Positions 2,221 to 28,409 of a DNA stretch of 32,701 nt are shown piece after piece (positions within the stretch are counted from its first letter, which is position 1; each line of letters begins with the position of its first letter). The notes below the pieces were generated by a model, which was not told where the DNA came from, did no database searches, and saw only the letters and a program-made list of their open reading frames with translations. The translations under genes were made by a program, and so were the position numbers. The stretch lies in the IMG/VR virus record IMGVR_UViG_3300047512_000028, positions 1 through 32,701 of that record; one strand, 5' to 3'. Source of the DNA: a virus.

Positions 2221-2919
2221 ATGCATAAGAGGATTTTAATTGTATCTGATTTACATATTCCTTATCATAGACCTGACTCATTTGATTTTTTAAAAGAAAT
2301 AAAAAAACAATTTAAACCTGATACAATAATAAACATTGGAGATGAGATTGATTGCCACGCACTTTCATTCCACGACCACAACCCAGATTTATTTTCTGCT
2401 GGACATGAATTAGCTAAAGCCAAAGATTATATTAAAGAATTAGAATCTATTTTTCCTAAAATGACTTTGTTAGACTCAAATCATTCTAGCTTAGTTTATC
2501 GTAGAGCATTAAAGTCAGGAATACCTAAAGGATATTTAAAAAACTATAATGATTTTTTAAATGTAAAGAAATGGAACTGGGTAGATAATTTAACTTTAAC
2601 TTTGCCAAACAAACAAAGATGTTTCTTTACTCACGGCATATCTGCTGATGTCACTAAAGTTTCTCAAATTAATGGAATGAGTTGTGTGCAGGGGCATTTT
2701 CATTCCAAGTTTTCTCTTAATTTTTGGGCAAATAGTGATTCACTATTTTTTGCTATGCAAGTAGGTTGTTTAATACAACAAACCAATATGGCATTTACAT
2801 ATTCTAAAAACTTTAAAACTAAATTTATTATGGGGTGCGGAATGATTATTGACAGCAACCCTAGACTTATGCCAATGGTGCTTAATAAGGAAGGTAAATG
2901 GATAGGGAAGTTAGTTTAA
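2221..2919 (+). CDS. Calcineurin-like metallophosphoesterase
   Basis: 232 residues from ATG 2221 (MHKRILIVSD). The open frame extends 34 codons further upstream, but that part lies inside the XhlA-like gene in another frame and is not domain sequence. Metal-binding motifs appear in family order: D10-x-H12 (SDLH), GDEID (D41), SNH (N87, H88), THG (H138) and GHFH (H159, H161). The fold would hydrolyse phosphomono- or diesters (nucleotides, DNA ends or a cyclic nucleotide); the substrate is unknown. Such enzymes are frequent in phages. It overlaps the M15 peptidase gene by 22 bases. Confidence 0.85.
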   Translation: MHKRILIVSDLHIPYHRPDSFDFLKEIKKQFKPDTIINIGDEIDCHALSFHDHNPDLFSAGHELAKAKDYIKELESIFPKMTLLDSNHSSLVYRRALKSGIPKGYLKNYNDFLNVKKWNWVDNLTLTLPNKQRCFFTHGISADVTKVSQINGMSCVQGHFHSKFSLNFWANSDSLFFAMQVGCLIQQTNMAFTYSKNFKTKFIMGCGMIIDSNPRLMPMVLNKEGKWIGKLV

Positions 2920-3344
2920 AAGAATTACTGTTTAGCGAGAGTGCAACAAGACTTAACATTAATAACGAACCAAACGAACAGATATTAATTAATCTACAAA
3001 CTTTAGTAATAGAAATAATTAATCCTATTGTTAATCGCTTTGGAGATATTAAAATAACTAGCGGTTATCGTTCTAAAGAATTATGCGAAGCCATTGGTAG
3101 CAAACCAACATCACAACATACTAAAGGAGAAGCTGTGGACTTTGAAGTTCCTAGTGTCTCTAATAAAGAAGTTGCTGACTGGATAAACAAAAATCTAATC
3201 TATGACCAACTCATATTAGAGTTTTGGAATCCTGCTGAAATAAATAGCGGTTGGATTCATTGTAGCTTCACTAAAGAGAATAATAGAAAACAATATTTAA
3301 AAGCATATCGCAAAAATGGAATGATGGTTTATGAATCCCTTTAA
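2898..3344 (+). CDS. Peptidase M15A-like endolysin
   Basis: 148 residues. Zn-ligand motifs of the D-Ala-D-Ala carboxypeptidase/M15A fold are present: SGYRS (residues 55-59), SQHTKGEAVDFEV with H74 and D81, and GWIHCSF with H121. The length fits a single-domain phage endolysin without a cell-wall-binding domain. It would cleave peptide cross-links of peptidoglycan at lysis. A GGAAGG ribosome site lies before the ATG. No signal peptide is seen, so export through a holin is expected. The neighbouring XhlA-like and holin-like genes support this. Confidence 0.85.
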   Translation: MDREVSLKELLFSESATRLNINNEPNEQILINLQTLVIEIINPIVNRFGDIKITSGYRSKELCEAIGSKPTSQHTKGEAVDFEVPSVSNKEVADWINKNLIYDQLILEFWNPAEINSGWIHCSFTKENNRKQYLKAYRKNGMMVYESL

Positions 3345-11670: not shown

Positions 11671-12300
11671 ATGCCTTTAATGAATATTAATTTAATATCG
11701 CAAAGACTGTATAACTATACAGTTGCGTTTCTCATTCTTTTACTTACTTTTGTCGTTGGTACATTTTTTCCAAATGACCATCTCAAAGAAGAATTGCGGA
11801 AAAAAACAATTAATGAAATTAAATCTATCGGAATATTTGAACCAAAGATAAGCAACCAGTCCAACTTAGATTTCATTAATACTACAACTAAATGTATTAA
11901 TTATCTTAACTTAGACCTAGATAAAGACGAGCAGATACCAACTATTTTAATATTAGCCCAAGCAGTTGTAGAGTCTAACTACGGAACATCACGGCTTTCG
12001 GTGGACGCACAAAATCTTTTTGGTATTAGAATATGGACAAAGGAAGGTGTTCTGCCACACAAAGTCCACCCTGATAGCAATTGGAGAATAAGAGTTTTTA
12101 AATCAAAATGCCAATCAGTTAAGTTTTACATCAATCTGCTAAACACTTCTCATCACTACGCAGAATTTAGAAAAATCCGCCAGTATAACAAAGACCCAAT
12201 AACTTTAGCAAAGACTTTAGATAAATTTTCTACTTCCCAAGACTATACGAATGAGATAATTCGAAATATTAAACATCTTAAATTACGATATGGCAAATGA
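11671..12300 (+). CDS. Bax-like glucosaminidase with membrane anchor
   Basis: 209 residues. An N-terminal membrane segment at about 16-33 (YTVAFLILLLTFVVGTFF) is followed by a glucosaminidase domain with LAQAVVESNYGTSRL (catalytic-type E101) and AQNLFGIRIW. It resembles the chromosomal Bax protein of Gram-negative bacteria and would cut peptidoglycan glycan strands from the periplasmic face. It is not in the lysis cluster, which suggests acquisition from a host or an entry/egress helper role. GGAAGG site; the last 11 bases overlap the next micro-gene. Confidence 0.8.
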   Translation: MPLMNINLISQRLYNYTVAFLILLLTFVVGTFFPNDHLKEELRKKTINEIKSIGIFEPKISNQSNLDFINTTTKCINYLNLDLDKDEQIPTILILAQAVVESNYGTSRLSVDAQNLFGIRIWTKEGVLPHKVHPDSNWRIRVFKSKCQSVKFYINLLNTSHHYAEFRKIRQYNKDPITLAKTLDKFSTSQDYTNEIIRNIKHLKLRYGK

Positions 12301-12403
12301 GACAACTTCCAGCACTTTATCGGTTTTGATTACTAATAAAAAAGCCAAAGGAACTTATAGAGTTTATAAAAAGAAAAATGGTAAGAAAAGTAATAAAAGA
12401 TAA
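12290..12403 (+). CDS. Micro-protein copying the capsid N-terminus, with a basic tail
   Basis: 37 residues: MANETTSSTLSVLITN, then a very basic tail rich in Lys. The first 16 residues match those of the major capsid protein at 21886 (MANETTSSTLSELFTN) at 14 positions, while only 5 of the 16 codons are identical. Protein conservation with synonymous divergence indicates selection on the peptide rather than a recent duplication. The ATG overlaps the end of the glucosaminidase gene and has no clear ribosome site. A role in capsid assembly is inference. Confidence 0.7.
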   Translation: MANETTSSTLSVLITNKKAKGTYRVYKKKNGKKSNKR

Positions 12404-12548
12404 ATCAACAGGACTTCCTAAAAAATATCTATCAGGATTAAAAGGTTCTGCCAGAAGTTCACGAGCAAGTCTTATAAAATCAATGAGTAAGATTTATAAA
12501 TCTGGTGGTCGCATACCTAAATCAATGTTTAAACAAAGAGTTAAATAA
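12378..12548 (+). CDS. Small basic protein (TGLPKKYLSGL family)
   Basis: 56 residues: KDKSTGLPKKYLSGLKG, a Ser/Arg-rich centre, and KSGGRIPKSMFKQRVK. A similar arrangement of TGLPKKY.SGL...R..LI...Y..G.RIP occurs in small basic proteins of marine phages. Highly positive, so likely nucleic-acid or capsid associated. It overlaps the upstream gene by 26 bases and the next by TAATG. Confidence 0.65.
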   Translation: MVRKVIKDKSTGLPKKYLSGLKGSARSSRASLIKSMSKIYKSGGRIPKSMFKQRVK

Positions 12549-12778
12549 TGGCACTATCTCCTTCAGTTATTAAAACACTAAGAGCAAAAGCTAAAGGCAG
12601 AAAATCTGTAACATTAGGACAATTAAAAAAAGTATATAGAAGGGGTCAAGGTGCATATCTATCATCTGGTTCAAGACCAAAAATATCAATGGCAGGTTGG
12701 GCTATGGCTAGAGTCAATTCCTTCATAAGAGGTTCAAGAAAACACGATACTGATTTAAGAAAAAGAAGAAAAAAATGA
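12548..12778 (+). CDS. Small basic protein (DUF5824-like)
   Basis: 76 residues, Lys/Arg-rich. The C-terminal half MAGWAMARVNSFIRGSRKHDTDL matches a conserved core (WAMARVNSFIRGS.KHDTDLR) found in marine phages and large DNA viruses. A GQLKKVYRRGQGAYLSSGSRP segment precedes it. Function unknown; the composition and cluster suggest DNA or capsid binding. Confidence 0.7.
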   Translation: MALSPSVIKTLRAKAKGRKSVTLGQLKKVYRRGQGAYLSSGSRPKISMAGWAMARVNSFIRGSRKHDTDLRKRRKK

Positions 12779-14756: not shown

Positions 14757-14886
14757 TAAAGAACATAAAGGTTCACATGATTTAGAAGTTATCATTTACA
14801 AACTTAAAAAAGAAATAGACCGATTAAATCTTGAACTACAAATCAAAGAAATAGAAATACAAAAGCTTCAAGATAAAAATGCTTAA
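14749..14886 (+). CDS. Small coiled-coil protein
   Basis: 45 residues, almost all helical with heptad spacing (YKLKKEIDRLNLELQIKEIE). It overlaps both neighbours by 8 bases. Likely a short coiled-coil partner; function unknown. Confidence 0.5.
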   Translation: MIDKEHKGSHDLEVIIYKLKKEIDRLNLELQIKEIEIQKLQDKNA

Positions 14887-15541
14887 TGTATTTATCGGTT
14901 ATGATAGCAAAGAAAAAATAGCTTATCATATATTAGCCGAAAGTATTTTAAGACACAGCACAATACCCATAAGTTTTACTCCAATTTATTTACCTAACAT
15001 TGTAGATTCATTTAATAGACCAAGAAATAGTTTATCATCTACTGAGTTCTCATTTAGTAGATTTATAATTCCTTACCTTATGGATTATAAAGGTTGGGCA
15101 TTATTCTTAGACTGCGATATGTTATTTAGAACTGACATCAAAGAACTATACAATCTTAGAAATGATGATTATGCAGTTATGGTTTGTCAGCATAATTACA
15201 CACCTAAACATCAATCTAAATTCGGCAATCAAATACAAACTGTTTATGAAAAAAAGAACTGGTCTAGTTTAATGCTAATGAATACCGAAAAATGCAAACA
15301 GCTTACTAAAGATTATGTTAATACTGCTTCAGGATTAGAACTTCATCAATTCAAATGGACTGACAAAGTAGGAAGTCTACCTTTAGAATGGAACTGGTTA
15401 GTTGGAGAATATCCTTACAATCCTAATGCAAAGAATGTTCATTTTACTAATGGCGGTTGTTATTTTGAATACTATGAATATTGCGATTACTCATCTGACT
15501 GGTTTAATATTTATACTGATACAGTTAAGATTCAGTTATGA
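14879..15541 (+). CDS. GT-A-type glycosyltransferase (GT8-like)
   Basis: 220 residues. FLDCDMLF (D78, D80) is a DxD-type metal/sugar-nucleotide motif; the N-terminus (NVFIGYDSKEKIAYHILAES) and the end (KNVHFTNGGCYFE) match glycosyltransferases of the GT8-like group seen in marine phages. It would transfer a sugar from a nucleotide donor. First gene of a four-gene cassette. The acceptor (glycan, protein or modified DNA base) is unknown. Confidence 0.75.
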   Translation: MLNVFIGYDSKEKIAYHILAESILRHSTIPISFTPIYLPNIVDSFNRPRNSLSSTEFSFSRFIIPYLMDYKGWALFLDCDMLFRTDIKELYNLRNDDYAVMVCQHNYTPKHQSKFGNQIQTVYEKKNWSSLMLMNTEKCKQLTKDYVNTASGLELHQFKWTDKVGSLPLEWNWLVGEYPYNPNAKNVHFTNGGCYFEYYEYCDYSSDWFNIYTDTVKIQL

Positions 15542-16131
15542 AAGCATTTGTAACTGGTGCTGATAAACAACAACAAGATATATTAGATTGGTTTTTAAAT
15601 AACTACAAAATCAATATTCCATTATTCATAGCAGATTTTGGATTAGACAAAGTATATCCTAATTCTTTTAAGATAAAACCAATAGGCAAAACTTGGTTCT
15701 CTAAACCTTTAGCAATATCAAAAGTTCCTGCAACACACATAATCTGGTTAGACTGCGACATAGAAATAAAACAAGATATATCCAATATGTTTGAAATGAT
15801 TATAGATGATTACCTAGTATCAAAAGACCACGCAGTTAGAAGTGATAGATGGCAAACTGGTATTGTAGGAATAAAAGATAAAGCTGTATTAAACAAATGG
15901 ATTGATAGATGTAACACTCAATTAGATAGAAGCGACCAAGAATCCTTTAATCAAATAGCAAATCAATTTAAAATAAATACATTACCAAACGAATATCACG
16001 GACTACGATTAAGTAAGAATAATGATATAGCTAAGACTATTCATTGGACTGGAGATAATGGAAAACAAATTATTAGAGAAAAGATTTATCAGTCAGAACA
16101 GAAACTCAAACATTGTTTCAGTTCCAATTAA
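15538..16131 (+). CDS. Second GT-A-type glycosyltransferase-like protein
   Basis: 197 residues. IIWLDCDIEI (D72, D74) again gives the DxD motif, with DRSDQESFNQI and HWTG further on, in the typical order for GT-A enzymes. It is ATGA-coupled to the previous one and shares its layout, so the two may act in sequence. The 3' end overlaps the ParB-like gene by 74 bases, which is unusually long here. Confidence 0.7.
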   Translation: MKAFVTGADKQQQDILDWFLNNYKINIPLFIADFGLDKVYPNSFKIKPIGKTWFSKPLAISKVPATHIIWLDCDIEIKQDISNMFEMIIDDYLVSKDHAVRSDRWQTGIVGIKDKAVLNKWIDRCNTQLDRSDQESFNQIANQFKINTLPNEYHGLRLSKNNDIAKTIHWTGDNGKQIIREKIYQSEQKLKHCFSSN

Positions 16132-16972
16132 ATATATTAAATACTCCAATCAATTTAACAAACATAATTGGTTAAGTCTTAAAGTCAGGTCAGAACGAGA
16201 CAATCTTTATCTTAATGACAATCTTGCAAAACGCAGATTAAAAACCTTACCTGATATTCAAAATCTATTTAATCCTATAATAGTATGGGCTAGAGATTAT
16301 CTTATTTGTATCTTCGGCAACAAACGATTAAAGACAGCTATTGATAATAACTATACTCATATTGATTGTTTAATTTATAAAGACTTGGATAAAGCAGTTC
16401 AAATAGGCACAAGCATTTGGAATACTTTCAAACAATATAAGTTAAGCAAAGTTGATGAATTACTAATAAATGATAATCAGGCAATAACTGACATCTCAAA
16501 ATATATGATTGAAGAAAAACAATACATAGACGAATACGCAACGCATCAGCAAATATTAATTAAAGAAGCTTTACAATCCAATATAGATATAATGGAAACT
16601 GGGTGCGGTTATTATTCAACACCATTACTTGTTGAAATAGCAAAATCAAAAGGAATAAAACTAATATCATTTGTAGAAGAAATAAACTGGGCTAGAAGAT
16701 TTGATTACTTAATAGGAGAACATTACCAACAAATACAAATAGACTTTAAAAAAGAAATACCTTTAACTCAAAGATTTGGAATGTGTTTATTAGACCACGA
16801 GCAATTAACTAAAGATAGAATTAAACATCTCAATCATATTCTTAAACATACAGATACAGTTATAGTTCACGACTTAGAGAGAATACAATCATTTAACTTC
16901 TTGCATAAACCATATACAGTTGAAATCTTTAATAGATTAACACCACACACAGCTATTATTAGAAATGTTTAA
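16058..16972 (+). CDS. ParB-like domain fused to a methyltransferase-like domain
   Basis: 304 residues. N-terminal part (about 19-110): VSVPIKYI, then ICIFGNKRLKTAIDNNYTHIDCLI, with a GxxR motif (G87-R90) as in the ParB/sulfiredoxin fold. C-terminal part (about 165-304): DIMETGCGYYSTPLL (methyltransferase motif I, E180-G184), SFVEEINW, CLLDHE and VIVHD, a Rossmann SAM-dependent pattern. No alternative in-frame ATG, GTG or TTG comes before the domain, so the 74-base overlap appears real. The combination of ParB fold and methyltransferase in one chain, next to glycosyltransferases, is unusual. Confidence 0.65.
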   Translation: MENKLLEKRFISQNRNSNIVSVPIKYIKYSNQFNKHNWLSLKVRSERDNLYLNDNLAKRRLKTLPDIQNLFNPIIVWARDYLICIFGNKRLKTAIDNNYTHIDCLIYKDLDKAVQIGTSIWNTFKQYKLSKVDELLINDNQAITDISKYMIEEKQYIDEYATHQQILIKEALQSNIDIMETGCGYYSTPLLVEIAKSKGIKLISFVEEINWARRFDYLIGEHYQQIQIDFKKEIPLTQRFGMCLLDHEQLTKDRIKHLNHILKHTDTVIVHDLERIQSFNFLHKPYTVEIFNRLTPHTAIIRNV

Positions 16973-17510
16973 TCCTTACGACCATTTTAAAAATAAAAAT
17001 GTTTTATTAATAGGTAATGGAGAAAATCTAGGCAACATTGAATACAGCAATTACGATACAATAGTTAGAATGAATCTAGGAGTTCAAGACAAACCTTGTA
17101 ATGTATGGATTAACAACTTGGTACACGAAGGTCATAATAAATTAAAATTTATTCCTGATATTCATTACATTGTAAGACTTAACTTTGAAAAGAACGGAAC
17201 TAGAGTTAATCGTATGCCAGATTGGGTTAAAGAAAAAGCTTGGCTATGGAATACCCAAGAATACAATCTTATGACAACCACCTATAATTATAATAGACCA
17301 ACAACTGGTTTTGTATCTATCTACTGGCTAGTTAATTATTGTAATTGCAAACTAACAATTACTGGATTTGATTTTTTTAAAACCAAGAACAGATATACAA
17401 TGGAAGAAGTACATCACATAGGAACTTCAAAAGGTTATAATCACGATATGGAACTAGAACAGAATGTTATTACTAAATTAATTCAAAGAGGAATTATAAA
17501 TGCCATTTAG
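16965..17510 (+). CDS. GT29 sialyltransferase-like protein
   Basis: 181 residues. Motif L-like NVLLIGNGENLG, then YDTIVRMN (12-37); motif S-like RPTTGFVSIYWLVNYCNCKL, then TITGFDF (111-137); and a VS-like H160-x4-E165 in HDMELE. These three in order are the hallmark of GT29 (sialyltransferase fold), although the protein is shorter than eukaryotic members. It would transfer a sialic-acid-like sugar from a CMP-type donor; no donor-synthesis gene is present, so a host supply is needed. It overlaps TerL by 11 bases. Confidence 0.75.
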   Translation: MFNPYDHFKNKNVLLIGNGENLGNIEYSNYDTIVRMNLGVQDKPCNVWINNLVHEGHNKLKFIPDIHYIVRLNFEKNGTRVNRMPDWVKEKAWLWNTQEYNLMTTTYNYNRPTTGFVSIYWLVNYCNCKLTITGFDFFKTKNRYTMEEVHHIGTSKGYNHDMELEQNVITKLIQRGIINAI

Positions 17511-20131: not shown

Positions 20132-21094
20132 GTGGCTTCTATCATTACAGAACTCCAAGCTTTAAGAGCAAACGCAATAACTTCACTAGAAGATAAACAA
20201 CAAGAACTATTAATTAAAACACTTCAGCAATTAGAAAAAAGAGTTGTTGATAGAGCCTTGACCTTACCTACAAGGGACGGACAATTATTTGATACAAGAC
20301 TTGCAATAGAACTGCGACCACAATTACAAAGAGCAATAGAAGAACTTTATTTAGTACCAGTACAAACCTTCATAAAAGATTATGATAAAGTTGCGGCAAA
20401 CATTGTAGCAACTTATGGCAAACTTCCAGTACCAGCAGAATTTAAACAAATAAGAGAAATAGATTTAAGAGTCATTCAGCAATTAAAAAAAATAACATTT
20501 TCTCAATTTCAAAATCTTGGAAATGAATTTGTGAACACACTAGCCAATGAAGTTTATCAATCTACTTTAACTGGTAGACCAGTAGTAGATATGATTGAAA
20601 CATTAAGAGGTAAAATAAATGGTATCTATCAACAATCCGATAATAGAAAAGCACAAGAGTTAGTAGACTATATAGCCAACAATCCTAATGGTGCAGAAGT
20701 TGATACTGCGGTTTCTGAATTACAAACTATTTATGGTAGAGACAGATTAGGCGACAATCTAAATAGATACGCAAGTCAGATAGTCCAAGATTCATTAATG
20801 GGCTTTGATGGACAGTTTGCAAAATTTAGAGCAGATGAATTAGGATTAACTTCTTATGTTTATTATGGAACTTTAGTTAGAGACAGTAGGGATTTCTGCG
20901 TAGAAAATGTAAATAAGATATTTACTGAAGAAGAAATTAGGCAAAAGTGGGCAGAAGAAACTTGGCAAGGCAAAGCACAAGGAGACCCATTTGTTGTTAG
21001 AGGTGGCTATAATTGTAGACATCACTTTCAACCAACAAGTCCTGAATGGGGTATAGTCAAAGAAGATGGTACTTTTGAGTTCACTTTAGAATAA
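20132..21094 (+). CDS. Head morphogenesis protein (Mu F/SPP1 gp7-like)
   Basis: 320 residues, starting at GTG 20132 two bases after the portal stop; an ATG at 20130 is in another frame. The C-terminal part has YVYYGTLVRDSRDFC...F and VRGGYNCRHHFQP, the end of the phage Mu F-like head morphogenesis domain. It probably binds the portal and is a minor head component. Long helical N-terminal part. Confidence 0.75.
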   Translation: MASIITELQALRANAITSLEDKQQELLIKTLQQLEKRVVDRALTLPTRDGQLFDTRLAIELRPQLQRAIEELYLVPVQTFIKDYDKVAANIVATYGKLPVPAEFKQIREIDLRVIQQLKKITFSQFQNLGNEFVNTLANEVYQSTLTGRPVVDMIETLRGKINGIYQQSDNRKAQELVDYIANNPNGAEVDTAVSELQTIYGRDRLGDNLNRYASQIVQDSLMGFDGQFAKFRADELGLTSYVYYGTLVRDSRDFCVENVNKIFTEEEIRQKWAEETWQGKAQGDPFVVRGGYNCRHHFQPTSPEWGIVKEDGTFEFTLE

Positions 21095-21154: not shown

Positions 21155-21874
21155 ATGAACGACCAAGTTAAAAAAGAGTCGGTTGAGAAAACAGCAACTC
21201 AGGAAAAAGCTGGAGAAGTTAAAACTTCTGAAACTCAATCAGAAAACAAAATCTTTACTGAAGAACAAGTAGAGAACATAGTACAAAGAAGGTTAGAACG
21301 ATTTAAAAAATCAGTATCTAATAAACTTGATGGCATTGATATTGAAGAAGCCAAAAAGTTGATTGAAGAAAAGAAGCAAAAAGAAATAGAACTTGCAAAA
21401 CAACGAGGCGAGTTTGATAAAGTCTTAAAAGAGACTGTGTCAAAGAAGGACGATAGAATTAAGCAGTTGGAATCTGAATTATCAAAAATTCGGATAGATG
21501 AAACATTAGTCAATGTAGCTAGTGGACTGAAAGCTGTTAAACCAGCAGAAGTTAAACAGTTACTAAGACAATATGTTCGTTTAAACGATAGTGGTTCTGT
21601 TGAAGTAATAACTGATGCTGGAACACCTAGATATTCAGAAAAAGGCGAACCAATGAGTGTAAATGATTTGGTTGCTGATTATTTAAAGAACAATCCCCAT
21701 CATGTTACCGCAACACCAAGTGGTGCTGGTAGCAAAGGACAGATTGGTGGTGCAACACCTAAACCATTGAACATTAGGGATTTGGACTTGTCTAAAGCTG
21801 AGGACAGAAAATTATATTCTGAATACAGAAAACAACGAGACCAAAGTGTATTTAAAATAAAACCAACAATATAG
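21155..21874 (+). CDS. Scaffolding protein
   Basis: 239 residues, highly charged and helical with long coiled coil (VENIVQRRLERFKKSV, EAKKLIEEKKQKEIELAK, DDRIKQLESELSKI) and a flexible Gly/Pro C-terminus ending in a basic helix (YSEYRKQRDQSVFKIKP). Placed directly before the capsid gene with a strong AAGGAG site, as is usual for a separate scaffold. It would direct procapsid assembly and then leave or be cleaved; no protease gene is identified, unless the HExxH protein acts. Confidence 0.8.
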   Translation: MNDQVKKESVEKTATQEKAGEVKTSETQSENKIFTEEQVENIVQRRLERFKKSVSNKLDGIDIEEAKKLIEEKKQKEIELAKQRGEFDKVLKETVSKKDDRIKQLESELSKIRIDETLVNVASGLKAVKPAEVKQLLRQYVRLNDSGSVEVITDAGTPRYSEKGEPMSVNDLVADYLKNNPHHVTATPSGAGSKGQIGGATPKPLNIRDLDLSKAEDRKLYSEYRKQRDQSVFKIKPTI

Positions 21875-21885
21875 GATAAAAAACT

Positions 21886-22737
21886 ATGGCAAACGAAACA
21901 ACAAGTTCCACACTTTCGGAACTTTTTACGAATATAACTCAGGAAGCTATATTCACATTCCAAGAGACTTCAGTAATGAGACCTCTTGTAACTGTGTACC
22001 CAATATCTGGCTCAGGCAAGGTAGTTGAAGTACCAGTATATCCAACAGTTAGTGCATCAGCAGTTAACGAAGCTTCTGATTTATCTAACACAGCAGTCAA
22101 TCCAACATCTGCAACTATTACAGCTTCAGAAGTTGGTGTTATGACTACTCTTACCGATTTAGGTAGAGATTCTGCATCAAGAAATGTAGGTGCTGATATT
22201 GGAAAATTATTCGGAGAAGCATTAGCTAAAAAAGTTGATACTGATTTAACTGGGCTTCTTGATGATTTTGCTTCGGCAAATGACCAAGGCGGTGCAGGAA
22301 CAGAACTTACTGCTGACTTGCTTTTCAAAGCACAAGCAATACTAAGAACAGCTAGTGTACCAGCACCATATTATGGTGTGTTCCACCCTAAAGCAGTTTT
22401 CAATTTAAAGAAAACTCTTACACAAGCTGGTTATTCAGGAACTGCAACTGCAATTTCTGATATTGGTAATGAAGCATTAAGAAACGGATATATCGGCAGA
22501 ATCGCTGGTATTGATGTATTTGAAAATGCTAACATATCAATAGATGCTTATGATGATGCTTTTGGCGGTGTATTCCACCCAGCTTCATTAGGTCTTTGCA
22601 TTAAAGAAGAAATCAAAATTGAAACTCAAAGAGATGCTTCTTTAAGAGCAACAGAAATAGTCGGTTCAATTGTTTACGGAGTAGGTGTTGTAAAAGACAC
22701 TTTCGGTGTAACAGTTAAAACTGATGCGGCTCTATAA
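21886..22737 (+). CDS. Major capsid protein (HK97-fold)
   Basis: 283 residues. Long N-terminal arm MANETTSSTLSELFTN, then ETSVMRPLVTVYPISGSGKVVEVPVYP (E-loop-like), LTDLGRDSA, a spine helix (GEALAKKVDTDLTGLLDDFA), FHPKAVFNLKK and a P-domain ending IVYGVGVVKDTFGVTV. The pattern and position match marine-phage HK97-fold capsid proteins without a fused delta domain. Its first 16 residues recur in the micro-protein at 12290. A strong hairpin lies directly behind the stop. Confidence 0.88.
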   Translation: MANETTSSTLSELFTNITQEAIFTFQETSVMRPLVTVYPISGSGKVVEVPVYPTVSASAVNEASDLSNTAVNPTSATITASEVGVMTTLTDLGRDSASRNVGADIGKLFGEALAKKVDTDLTGLLDDFASANDQGGAGTELTADLLFKAQAILRTASVPAPYYGVFHPKAVFNLKKTLTQAGYSGTATAISDIGNEALRNGYIGRIAGIDVFENANISIDAYDDAFGGVFHPASLGLCIKEEIKIETQRDASLRATEIVGSIVYGVGVVKDTFGVTVKTDAAL

Positions 22738-27445: not shown

Positions 27446-27999
27446 TGACCAGAAGTTTAAATGCTTCCCTAATAACAGAACTTGCAACTAATAAACTTAA
27501 TCCAGTTGAATTAGTTTATTTAGGAATATCTACTGGAACATATTATACCGACCATTACAAAGATATTACTTATGATGGCAATACATATACATCATCTTCC
27601 TTATTTCTTGGTGCTTCTGAAACTAATGAAAGTTCTGAAATAGGAGTTAATAATTTAATTCTTAAATTTTCTGGTGCTGACCAAACTATAATATCTCTTT
27701 TTTTAAATAATGATTATATGGATAAAAGAGCATGGGTATATAGAGCATTTTTAGATGAGAACCAAGCAGTCATAAATTATCCATTTCTTTTATTTGATGG
27801 CAGAATAGAAAACTTTAATATAGATGAAGAAGATACAAGTTCAGTAGTTTCAATTAGTGTTGCATCACATTGGGCAGATTTTGAAAAACAAAAAGGAAGA
27901 AAAACAAATACTAACTCTCAAAAATTACATTTTCCAAATGATGTAGGTTTTGATTATTCATCACAAGCTATTCAGGATATTAAATGGGGAAGGAGTTAA
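27445..27999 (+). CDS. Tail tip protein (gpL / DUF2163-like)
   Basis: 184 residues. NPVELVYLGISTGTYYTDHYKDI, then VNNLILKFSGADQTIISLFLN, and SVVSISVASHWADFEKQKGRK. The pattern fits minor tail proteins such as gpL or DUF2163 that follow the distal tail protein and precede an NlpC/P60-type gene in many tail modules. Here the next gene is instead HlyC-like. TAATG-coupled. Confidence 0.65.
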   Translation: MTRSLNASLITELATNKLNPVELVYLGISTGTYYTDHYKDITYDGNTYTSSSLFLGASETNESSEIGVNNLILKFSGADQTIISLFLNNDYMDKRAWVYRAFLDENQAVINYPFLLFDGRIENFNIDEEDTSSVVSISVASHWADFEKQKGRKTNTNSQKLHFPNDVGFDYSSQAIQDIKWGRS

Positions 28000-28409
28000 T
28001 GGACTTTTATAAAATCATTCATTTATTTAGGCAGTTTAAAAAATACGATAAATTTAATTATGCTCAGTTAGTTGATGAAATCACTCCATCAATTAATTTA
28101 GGACAATATCAATTATTTTATAAAGATAATAATTTAGCTGGATTTATTAACTGGGCATTTATTACAGATACAGTTGAGCAAAGATATATTGCAACTGGCA
28201 AACTTAAAAAGAATGAATGGAATTGCGGAGATAATATTTGGATAGTTTCTTGCGTTGCTAAAACAAATTTTAAAGACATTTATAAATGGTGCAAAGATTA
28301 TTTTAAATCTATTACTGAAGAACATCAAAAAGTTAAATGGATAAGAACAAATAATATTAATCATATTTATAAACAATTCCAAACAGAACATAGAAAATAT
28401 GTCTATTAA
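27999..28409 (+). CDS. HlyC-like (toxin-activating acyltransferase-fold) protein
   Basis: 136 residues from ATG 27999, chosen because GGAAGGAG stands 5-6 bases ahead and the ATG overlaps the previous stop (TAATG); an in-frame ATG at 27984 lies before that site. The core GQYQLFYKDNNLAGFINWAF...VEQRY and WNCGDNIWIV matches the RTX toxin-activating lysine acyltransferase family (QY.LL..D..PVAY.SWA...E..Y; W.SGD..WF.D). By my recalled alignment, catalytic His23 of HlyC falls on Y16 and Asp92 on S84, so the activity may differ or be lost. It replaces the usual NlpC/P60 gene. Confidence 0.65.
   Translation: MDFYKIIHLFRQFKKYDKFNYAQLVDEITPSINLGQYQLFYKDNNLAGFINWAFITDTVEQRYIATGKLKKNEWNCGDNIWIVSCVAKTNFKDIYKWCKDYFKSITEEHQKVKWIRTNNINHIYKQFQTEHRKYVY

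What the first reader, a model, noticed from the sequence alone, without database searches (positions are those of the whole stretch)
12290..12403. Micro-protein that copies the major capsid N-terminus and adds a basic tail
The 37-residue product begins MANETTSSTLSVLITN; the capsid protein at 21886 begins MANETTSSTLSELFTN (14 of 16 identical). Only 5 of 16 codons are identical, so the match is kept at protein level, which chance or recent duplication cannot easily explain. After it the product is almost all Lys/Arg/Gly/Asn. The capsid N-arm is a plausible contact for scaffold or capsid assembly, so this peptide could compete for, or be built into, procapsids while its tail binds DNA. It has no clear ribosome site. 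The function is inference.
Basis: partly seen in the sequence, partly recalled or inferred. Interest (0 to 1): 0.75.

Follow-up and report, generated by a model that had tools for sequence, protein, structure and literature searches.

The report
Phage microprotein with capsid-like N-terminal tag
A family of marine and freshwater phages carries a tiny, strongly basic protein whose first 13-16 residues match the start of the phage's own shell protein, which suggests that the shell protein's N-terminus is reused as an address tag to bring a DNA-binding peptide into the new virus head.

Summary
The 37-residue ORF (12290-12403) is a real gene: 42 distinct homologues in window-type phages, and counterparts in two further clades of HTVC111P/HTVC202P-like phages. 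In all three clades residues 5-13 match the N-terminus of the major capsid protein (MCP) in the same register; profile-profile E is 4e-8 for the window clade. Among 67,833 ORF-start peptides from 409 related loci, this motif occurs only in MCPs, the microproteins and three chance ORFs. Synonymous sites vary freely (pN/pS 0.21, codons 2-10), so selection is on the protein. The basic tails differ between clades. Where the MCP has I10 instead of L10, most microproteins share the change, but in the window clade the microprotein varies without the MCP. Some relatives with the same MCP N-terminus lack the gene, so it is accessory. Best explanation: a capsid-targeted, DNA-binding microprotein that works like T4 internal proteins with their capsid targeting sequence, but uses a copy of the MCP N-arm. 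Packaging, binding partner and DNA binding are inferred, not shown.

The parts
12290..12403 (+). microprotein gene, 37 aa
   Evidence: ORF; 42 distinct homologues; purifying selection
12290..12337 (+). capsid-like head, codons 1-16 (MANETTSSTLSVLITN)
   Evidence: 14/16 identical to MCP; profile match E=4e-8 over columns 1-17
12338..12400 (+). basic tail with conserved KGTYRVY core
   Evidence: alignment A1; pN 0.03 against pS 0.41 in the core
21886..22737 (+). major capsid protein (HK97 type); residues 1-16 (21886-21933) are the sequence matched by the head
   Evidence: PHROG 267 major head protein E=3e-23; profile match to solved capsid 8i4l E=6e-10
21155..21874 (+). scaffolding protein, proposed docking partner; conserved basic C-terminal helix DRKLYSEYRKQRD
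   Evidence: PHROG 206 head scaffolding E=1e-13; C-termini compared in 157 loci
11671..12300 (+). membrane-anchored glucosaminidase lysin whose 3' end overlaps the micro start by 11 nt
   Evidence: Pfam Glucosaminidase E=3e-17; N-terminal hydrophobic stretch read from sequence
12378..12548 (+). small basic protein (PKKYLSGLKG family), start overlaps the micro tail by 26 nt; same neighbour follows the HTVC202P counterpart
   Evidence: PHROG 38321 E=1e-7; synteny
12548..12778 (+). DUF5824 small basic protein, also conserved in the HTVC202P cluster
   Evidence: Pfam PF19141 E=1e-8; synteny

Best explanation
The gene makes a two-part microprotein. Its first 13-16 residues copy the N-terminal arm of the phage's own major capsid protein and act as a capsid-targeting tag; its basic tail binds nucleic acid. 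During head assembly the tag docks where the MCP N-arm normally docks, either on the C-terminal helix of the scaffolding protein or in the N-arm groove of a neighbouring capsid subunit. The peptide is thereby carried into the procapsid, where the tail helps neutralise or organise the packaged DNA, or is ejected with it. Shown: the gene is real and under protein-level selection, the head matches the MCP N-terminus in three clades, the tails are basic but differ between clades, and the motif is specific to these two proteins. Inferred: entry into the capsid, the docking partner and DNA binding.
For: Same-register head in three clades and profile matches to the MCP N-terminus only (MCP HMM finds microproteins as N-terminal hits). 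Motif exclusive to MCP and microprotein among 67,833 ORF starts. Same head on dissimilar basic tails: window against third clade keeps 5.3 of 10 head positions but 1.6 of 14 tail positions, the pattern described for T4 internal proteins, which share only their targeting sequence (PMC3012670); the first 10 residues of T4 IPIII suffice for entry into the head (PMC9026906). Net charge +10 to +15. Neighbouring microproteins are Lys-rich and some have an AT-hook-like RGRP. A separate scaffold with a conserved basic C-terminal helix is present, and in P22 and 80alpha the scaffold C-terminus docks on the capsid N-arm (PMC9965877; PMC5644958).
Against: No virion or procapsid data. MCP Glu12, invariant among the aligned close MCPs, is replaced by V, K or A in window-clade heads, which weakens scaffold docking if that acid matters there. 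Within the window clade head residue 10 varies while the MCP does not. Several relatives with the same MCP N-terminus lack the gene. The gene lies beside the lysin, not in the head operon.
Confidence: 0.5

Rival explanations
1. Assembly regulator or decoy: the head competes with the MCP N-arm for scaffold or subunit contacts and tunes the rate or size of head assembly; the peptide is not a packaged cargo.
For: The head copies the MCP N-terminus. Small or capsid-derived proteins that redirect assembly exist in satellites: SaPI1 CpmB competes with the scaffold at the N-arm (PMC5644958) and SaPIbov5 Ccm is a capsid-protein relative (PMC6893505).
Against: Those examples are parasites acting on a helper; here the phage would inhibit itself. 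It does not explain the conserved strong basicity of the differing tails.
Confidence: 0.15
2. Shared processing or chaperone signal: MCP and microprotein carry the same N-terminus because one protease, modifying enzyme or chaperone acts on both, as Prp does on ribosomal L27 and on the 80alpha capsid and scaffold proteins.
For: In 80alpha three proteins share an N-terminal Prp motif, and a common chaperone has been suggested (PMC5744158). The motif here is likewise at the extreme N-terminus of two otherwise unlike proteins.
Against: The window scaffold lacks the motif, no strong prohead protease was recognised (only a weak PHROG 595 hit, E=0.003, for 20132-21094), and the residues that follow the shared head differ, so no common cleavage site is evident.
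Confidence: 0.1
3. Cationic lysis peptide (disruptin-like) made with the endolysin, attacking the envelope; the capsid-like start would be incidental.
For: Directly follows a lysin in two clades; small and cationic. Disruptins are recognised lysis proteins (PMC9239132 and reference 3 therein).
Against: The conserved part is the capsid-like head, not an amphipathic cationic helix. In HTVC202P-type phages other Lys-rich genes stand between lysin and microprotein.
Confidence: 0.08
4. Ordinary small DNA/RNA-binding protein acting in the infected cell; the S/T-rich helix start resembles the MCP through inherited sequence or convergence and has no capsid role.
For: Neighbouring slot genes are Lys-rich microproteins without a capsid-like head, some AT-hook-like. 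MCP and micro heads are both weakly predicted as short helices (low confidence).
Against: 14/16 identity in the window, motif exclusivity and the same register in three clades are hard to explain without a shared partner.
Confidence: 0.15

Closest known systems
Phage T4 internal proteins IPI/IPII/IPIII with N-terminal capsid targeting sequence (CTS)
   Same: Short N-terminal head shared by small basic proteins whose remaining sequence is diverse; accessory genes, replaced among relatives (PMC9026906, PMC3012670).
   Different: The T4 CTS is described as binding the scaffold core, not as a copy of the capsid protein; it is removed by the gp21 protease; T4 IPs are 8-20 kDa and shown to be in the head. 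Here the tag matches the MCP and no packaging is shown.
Prp-type N-terminal motif shared by 80alpha capsid protein, scaffold and ribosomal L27
   Same: The same N-terminal stretch on otherwise unrelated proteins, including a capsid protein and a small basic protein (PMC5744158).
   Different: There it is a host protease site; here the scaffold lacks it and no common cleavage site is visible.
SaPIbov5 Ccm and SaPI1 CpmB (capsid redirection proteins)
   Same: Proteins that mimic capsid or scaffold elements to join assembly (PMC6893505, PMC5644958).
   Different: Encoded by satellites; Ccm is a full capsid-fold protein, CpmB mimics the scaffold C-terminus; neither is a basic microprotein.
Pelagibacter phage HTVC202P gp54 (QGZ18370.1, hypothetical protein)
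   Same: Positional counterpart with a same-register head (TTTATLSEM) and basic tail.
   Different: Head resembles its MCP less closely; the tail is a Lys run instead of KGTYRVY; no function assigned in the record.

Membership tests
T4-type internal protein with CTS | short N-terminal head conserved across proteins with dissimilar remainder | tested here: met
T4-type internal protein with CTS | basic mature part | tested here: met
   net charge +10 to +15, pI 10.6-12
T4-type internal protein with CTS | prohead-protease site of the T4 kind ((I/L)xE) ending the head | tested here: not met
   window-clade heads read LSV, LNK or LAV; LxE/IxE occurs only in the other clades. The T4 consensus is from general knowledge; PMC9026906 gives LIE-9 for gp21
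T4-type internal protein with CTS | located inside the virion head | not testable with these tools
   needs virion mass spectrometry
T4-type internal protein with CTS | sequence similarity to T4 IP targeting sequences | not tested
   no T4 sequence was compared
80alpha-type Prp substrates | motif shared with the scaffold as well as the capsid protein | tested here: not met
   motif scan of the window finds only MCP, micro and one antisense ORF
Disruptin | membrane-disrupting cationic peptide required for lysis | not testable with these tools
   needs expression and knockout
Known Pfam / PHROG families | profile match of the 37-aa protein | tested here: not met
   0 families in Pfam and PHROGs at E up to 0.1

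The most novel reading that the evidence does not exclude
These phages reuse the N-terminal arm of their own major capsid protein as a portable packaging tag attached to interchangeable DNA-binding microproteins, so that basic peptides are loaded into the head through the MCP-arm docking site: a capsid-entry code different from the T4 CTS.
Probability: 0.4. Interest if true: 0.82.

Novelty: new variant of a known kind. Interest (0 to 1): 0.72.

Why it matters
If true, it identifies a minimal address of 13-16 residues that directs peptides into the heads of a phage group that includes SAR11 (Pelagibacter) phages, suggests that small tailed phages load DNA-binding peptides much as T4 does, and offers a simple tag for loading cargo into a capsid. 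It also shows that very short genes, often left out of annotation or called hypothetical, can be recognised by asking which other protein of the same genome they start like.

Tried and rejected
Chance similarity: rejected by shuffles and by conservation. Recent duplication or gene conversion: rejected, 5/16 codons identical in the window and 2-7/16 in relatives. Conserved DNA/RNA element: rejected, synonymous sites are diverse (pS 0.56). T4-type protease site: not conserved in the window clade. Strict residue-by-residue co-evolution with the MCP: rejected; only a between-clade L10/I10 association with exceptions. Phages with a more distant MCP (DSL-LC06-like, L365-L372) show no matching microprotein in the stretches held, so co-variation could not be tested with a truly different N-terminus. 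Direct tblastn search of sequenced phages with the 37-aa protein: no match; GTDB genome contigs: none confirmed. AlphaFold: MCP mean pLDDT 51 (N-arm about 31), micro 62; the weak N-terminal helices are not used as strong evidence. An MCP reading MANETTSSTLSITSSGK (L114/L358) looks like a deletion or assembly artefact and was not pursued. The apparent match in G094 (MRGNTTMLIW...) is a false hit.

Full report
OBSERVATION. The ORF at 12290-12403 encodes MANETTSSTLSVLITNKKAKGTYRVYKKKNGKKSNKR; the capsid protein at 21886 begins MANETTSSTLSELFTN. Of 853 possible ORF starts in the window, this one scores 64 against the MCP N-terminus and the next non-MCP start 29; shuffled MCP N-termini never gave more than 37 in 1000 trials, nor more than 8 identities in 300.

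THE GENE IS REAL. Of 22 viral contigs found through the upstream lysin, 21 have a 35-39 aa ORF just downstream of it. Together with MCP-bearing contigs and a search with the family alignment this gives 42 distinct proteins. The family consensus is MANETTSxSLSVLYTNKxKxKGTYRVYKPKxLKxxKK. Codons 2-10 show pS 0.56 and pN 0.12, the KGTYRVY core pS 0.41 and pN 0.03: purifying selection on the protein, with nucleotides free to drift. In the window the start overlaps the lysin's end (ATGGCAAATGA), which suggests translational coupling; relatives with a gap have an SD-like AAAGG or AAGGA about 9 nt upstream.

TWO FURTHER CLADES. The nearest sequenced isolates by MCP (about 52-55% identity) are the Pelagibacter phages HTVC111P, 112P, 026P and 202P. 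HTVC202P gp54 (36 aa, annotated hypothetical) is MVGFTTTATLSEMLNKFPMKKRRKKSGKKKKKKKST and was the best match in its genome to that genome's MCP N-terminus. It stands just upstream in the same run of small basic genes (PKKYLSGLKG and DUF5824 families) that follows the window gene. Of 73 lysin (M15) loci of this type, a strict motif search found 43 with such a microprotein, typically MSGFTTTSTLAEMINKRPMRKRRRNVKKKKKKKSTKR, and some of the other 30 carry variants that the pattern missed (L300, L313, L315; GTG-started VRGITTTTSIQEML in L296, L301-L303). A search with this second family brought a third clade with 44-51 aa proteins such as MSGFTTSSTISELINKRPIKQKRRVKITLKAPQNRNLKAVQKLLRVRGT.

HEAD VERSUS CAPSID PROTEIN. 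Profile comparison aligns the window family with the MCP over columns 1-17 only (E=4e-8), the second family with the MCP over 1-15 (E=0.0018, low probability), and the two micro families with each other over 1-17 (E=4e-7). An MCP HMM run over whole contigs reports microproteins as N-terminal matches. The motif M-x(2,4)-[TS]2[TSA]2[TS][LIV]xx[LMI] at an ORF start was found, among 67,833 distinct start peptides of 409 loci, in 134 MCPs, 63 microproteins and 3 chance ORFs; the reversed motif was found once. These loci were gathered partly through MCP and micro searches, so the counts measure specificity, not prevalence. Tails are basic everywhere (net +10, +15, +12 for one example of each clade) but differ: between window and third clade the head keeps 5.3 of 10 positions and the tail 1.6 of 14 (small hand-picked sets).

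CO-VARIATION. MCP N-termini are almost invariant inside a clade. In the third clade all 77 MCP N-termini read have I10 (the regular expression allowed any residue there). Pairing contigs that hold both genes in clades two and three: MCP I10 with micro I10 14, with L10 4; MCP L10 with micro I10 0, with L10 13 (one false hit removed). This is an association between clades, probably one event. Inside the window clade the micro has L, I, V or T at residue 10 while the MCP keeps L. Average identity to the own-clade MCP is highest in two of three clades. The head follows the MCP loosely, not strictly.

DISPENSABILITY. HTVC111P, 112P and 026P have the same kind of MCP N-terminus but other Lys-rich microproteins in that place; several metagenomic relatives likewise. 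The gene is accessory, as T4 internal proteins are (PMC9026906).

MECHANISM (inferred). The phage has an HK97-type MCP (PHROG 267; profile matches to solved capsids such as 8i4l) and a separate scaffold (PHROG 206) with a conserved basic C-terminal helix. In P22 and 80alpha the scaffold C-terminus docks on the capsid N-arm (PMC9965877; PMC5644958), and in P22 the N-arm later reaches into a neighbouring subunit. A peptide with the same arm could dock at either site and be carried into the procapsid, its basic tail then contacting DNA. The precedent is T4, where the first ten residues of IPIII suffice for entry into the head (PMC9026906) and lysines of internal proteins contact DNA phosphates (PMC3012670). 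I give this 0.5. The main weakness: window-type heads keep T5-S7 and L13, and mostly residue 10, but not the MCP glutamate 12, which is invariant in the close MCPs; if the scaffold contact needs that acid, the inter-subunit site is more likely. Rivals are an assembly decoy, a shared processing or chaperone signal, a lysis peptide and a cell-acting nucleic-acid binder.

CLASSIFICATION. It works like a T4 internal protein with a capsid targeting sequence, but it is not filed as a member: the protease site is not conserved in the window clade and virion location is untested. No Pfam or PHROG family matched it, and the literature searches made here (open-licence papers only) did not turn up a description of a phage microprotein that copies the MCP N-terminus.

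Noticed in passing
window 27984-28409: HlyC (RTX toxin acyltransferase) family protein, Pfam E=4e-19, inside the tail module between a minor-tail-protein-like gene and the large tail protein, with no RTX toxin noticed; isolate relatives carry the same gene at the same place. Its substrate is unknown.
   Followed up: partly
L366:1272, L367:9131, L369:9133, L370:1363, L371:8556, L372:8237: In DSL-LC06-like phages a Lys/RGG-rich microprotein of about 21-37 aa (e.g. MATRGGKKKKKKNTRGGKRRK) lies about 0.85-0.95 kb before the MCP, i.e. near the start of the scaffold gene, without a capsid-like head.
   Followed up: partly
L290, L320, L322, L326 downstream of the M15 lysin; also L104-L107: A variable array of Lys-rich microproteins (MLTKKQKKLPMALQKAI..., MPYHYGHG...KKKK, MVKKSRKKPPRGYHYMPDG...), some with an AT-hook-like RGRP (MPMGKGTYGSKRGRPAKKKKK); many are unannotated in the isolate records.
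   Followed up: partly
window 14879-17510: Sugar-related genes just before the terminase: a glycosyltransferase family 8 protein and a weak sialyltransferase (GT29) match.
   Followed up: no
window 2898-3344 and 11671-12300: Two candidate lysins in one genome: an M15 peptidase and a glucosaminidase with an N-terminal hydrophobic stretch. The micro cluster follows the M15 lysin in HTVC202P-type phages but the glucosaminidase here.
   Followed up: no
L410-L432, L437: Third-clade microproteins share a second conserved element near the C-terminus, [LFY][KR]AxQ[KR][LVI][LF], absent from the other clades.
   Followed up: no
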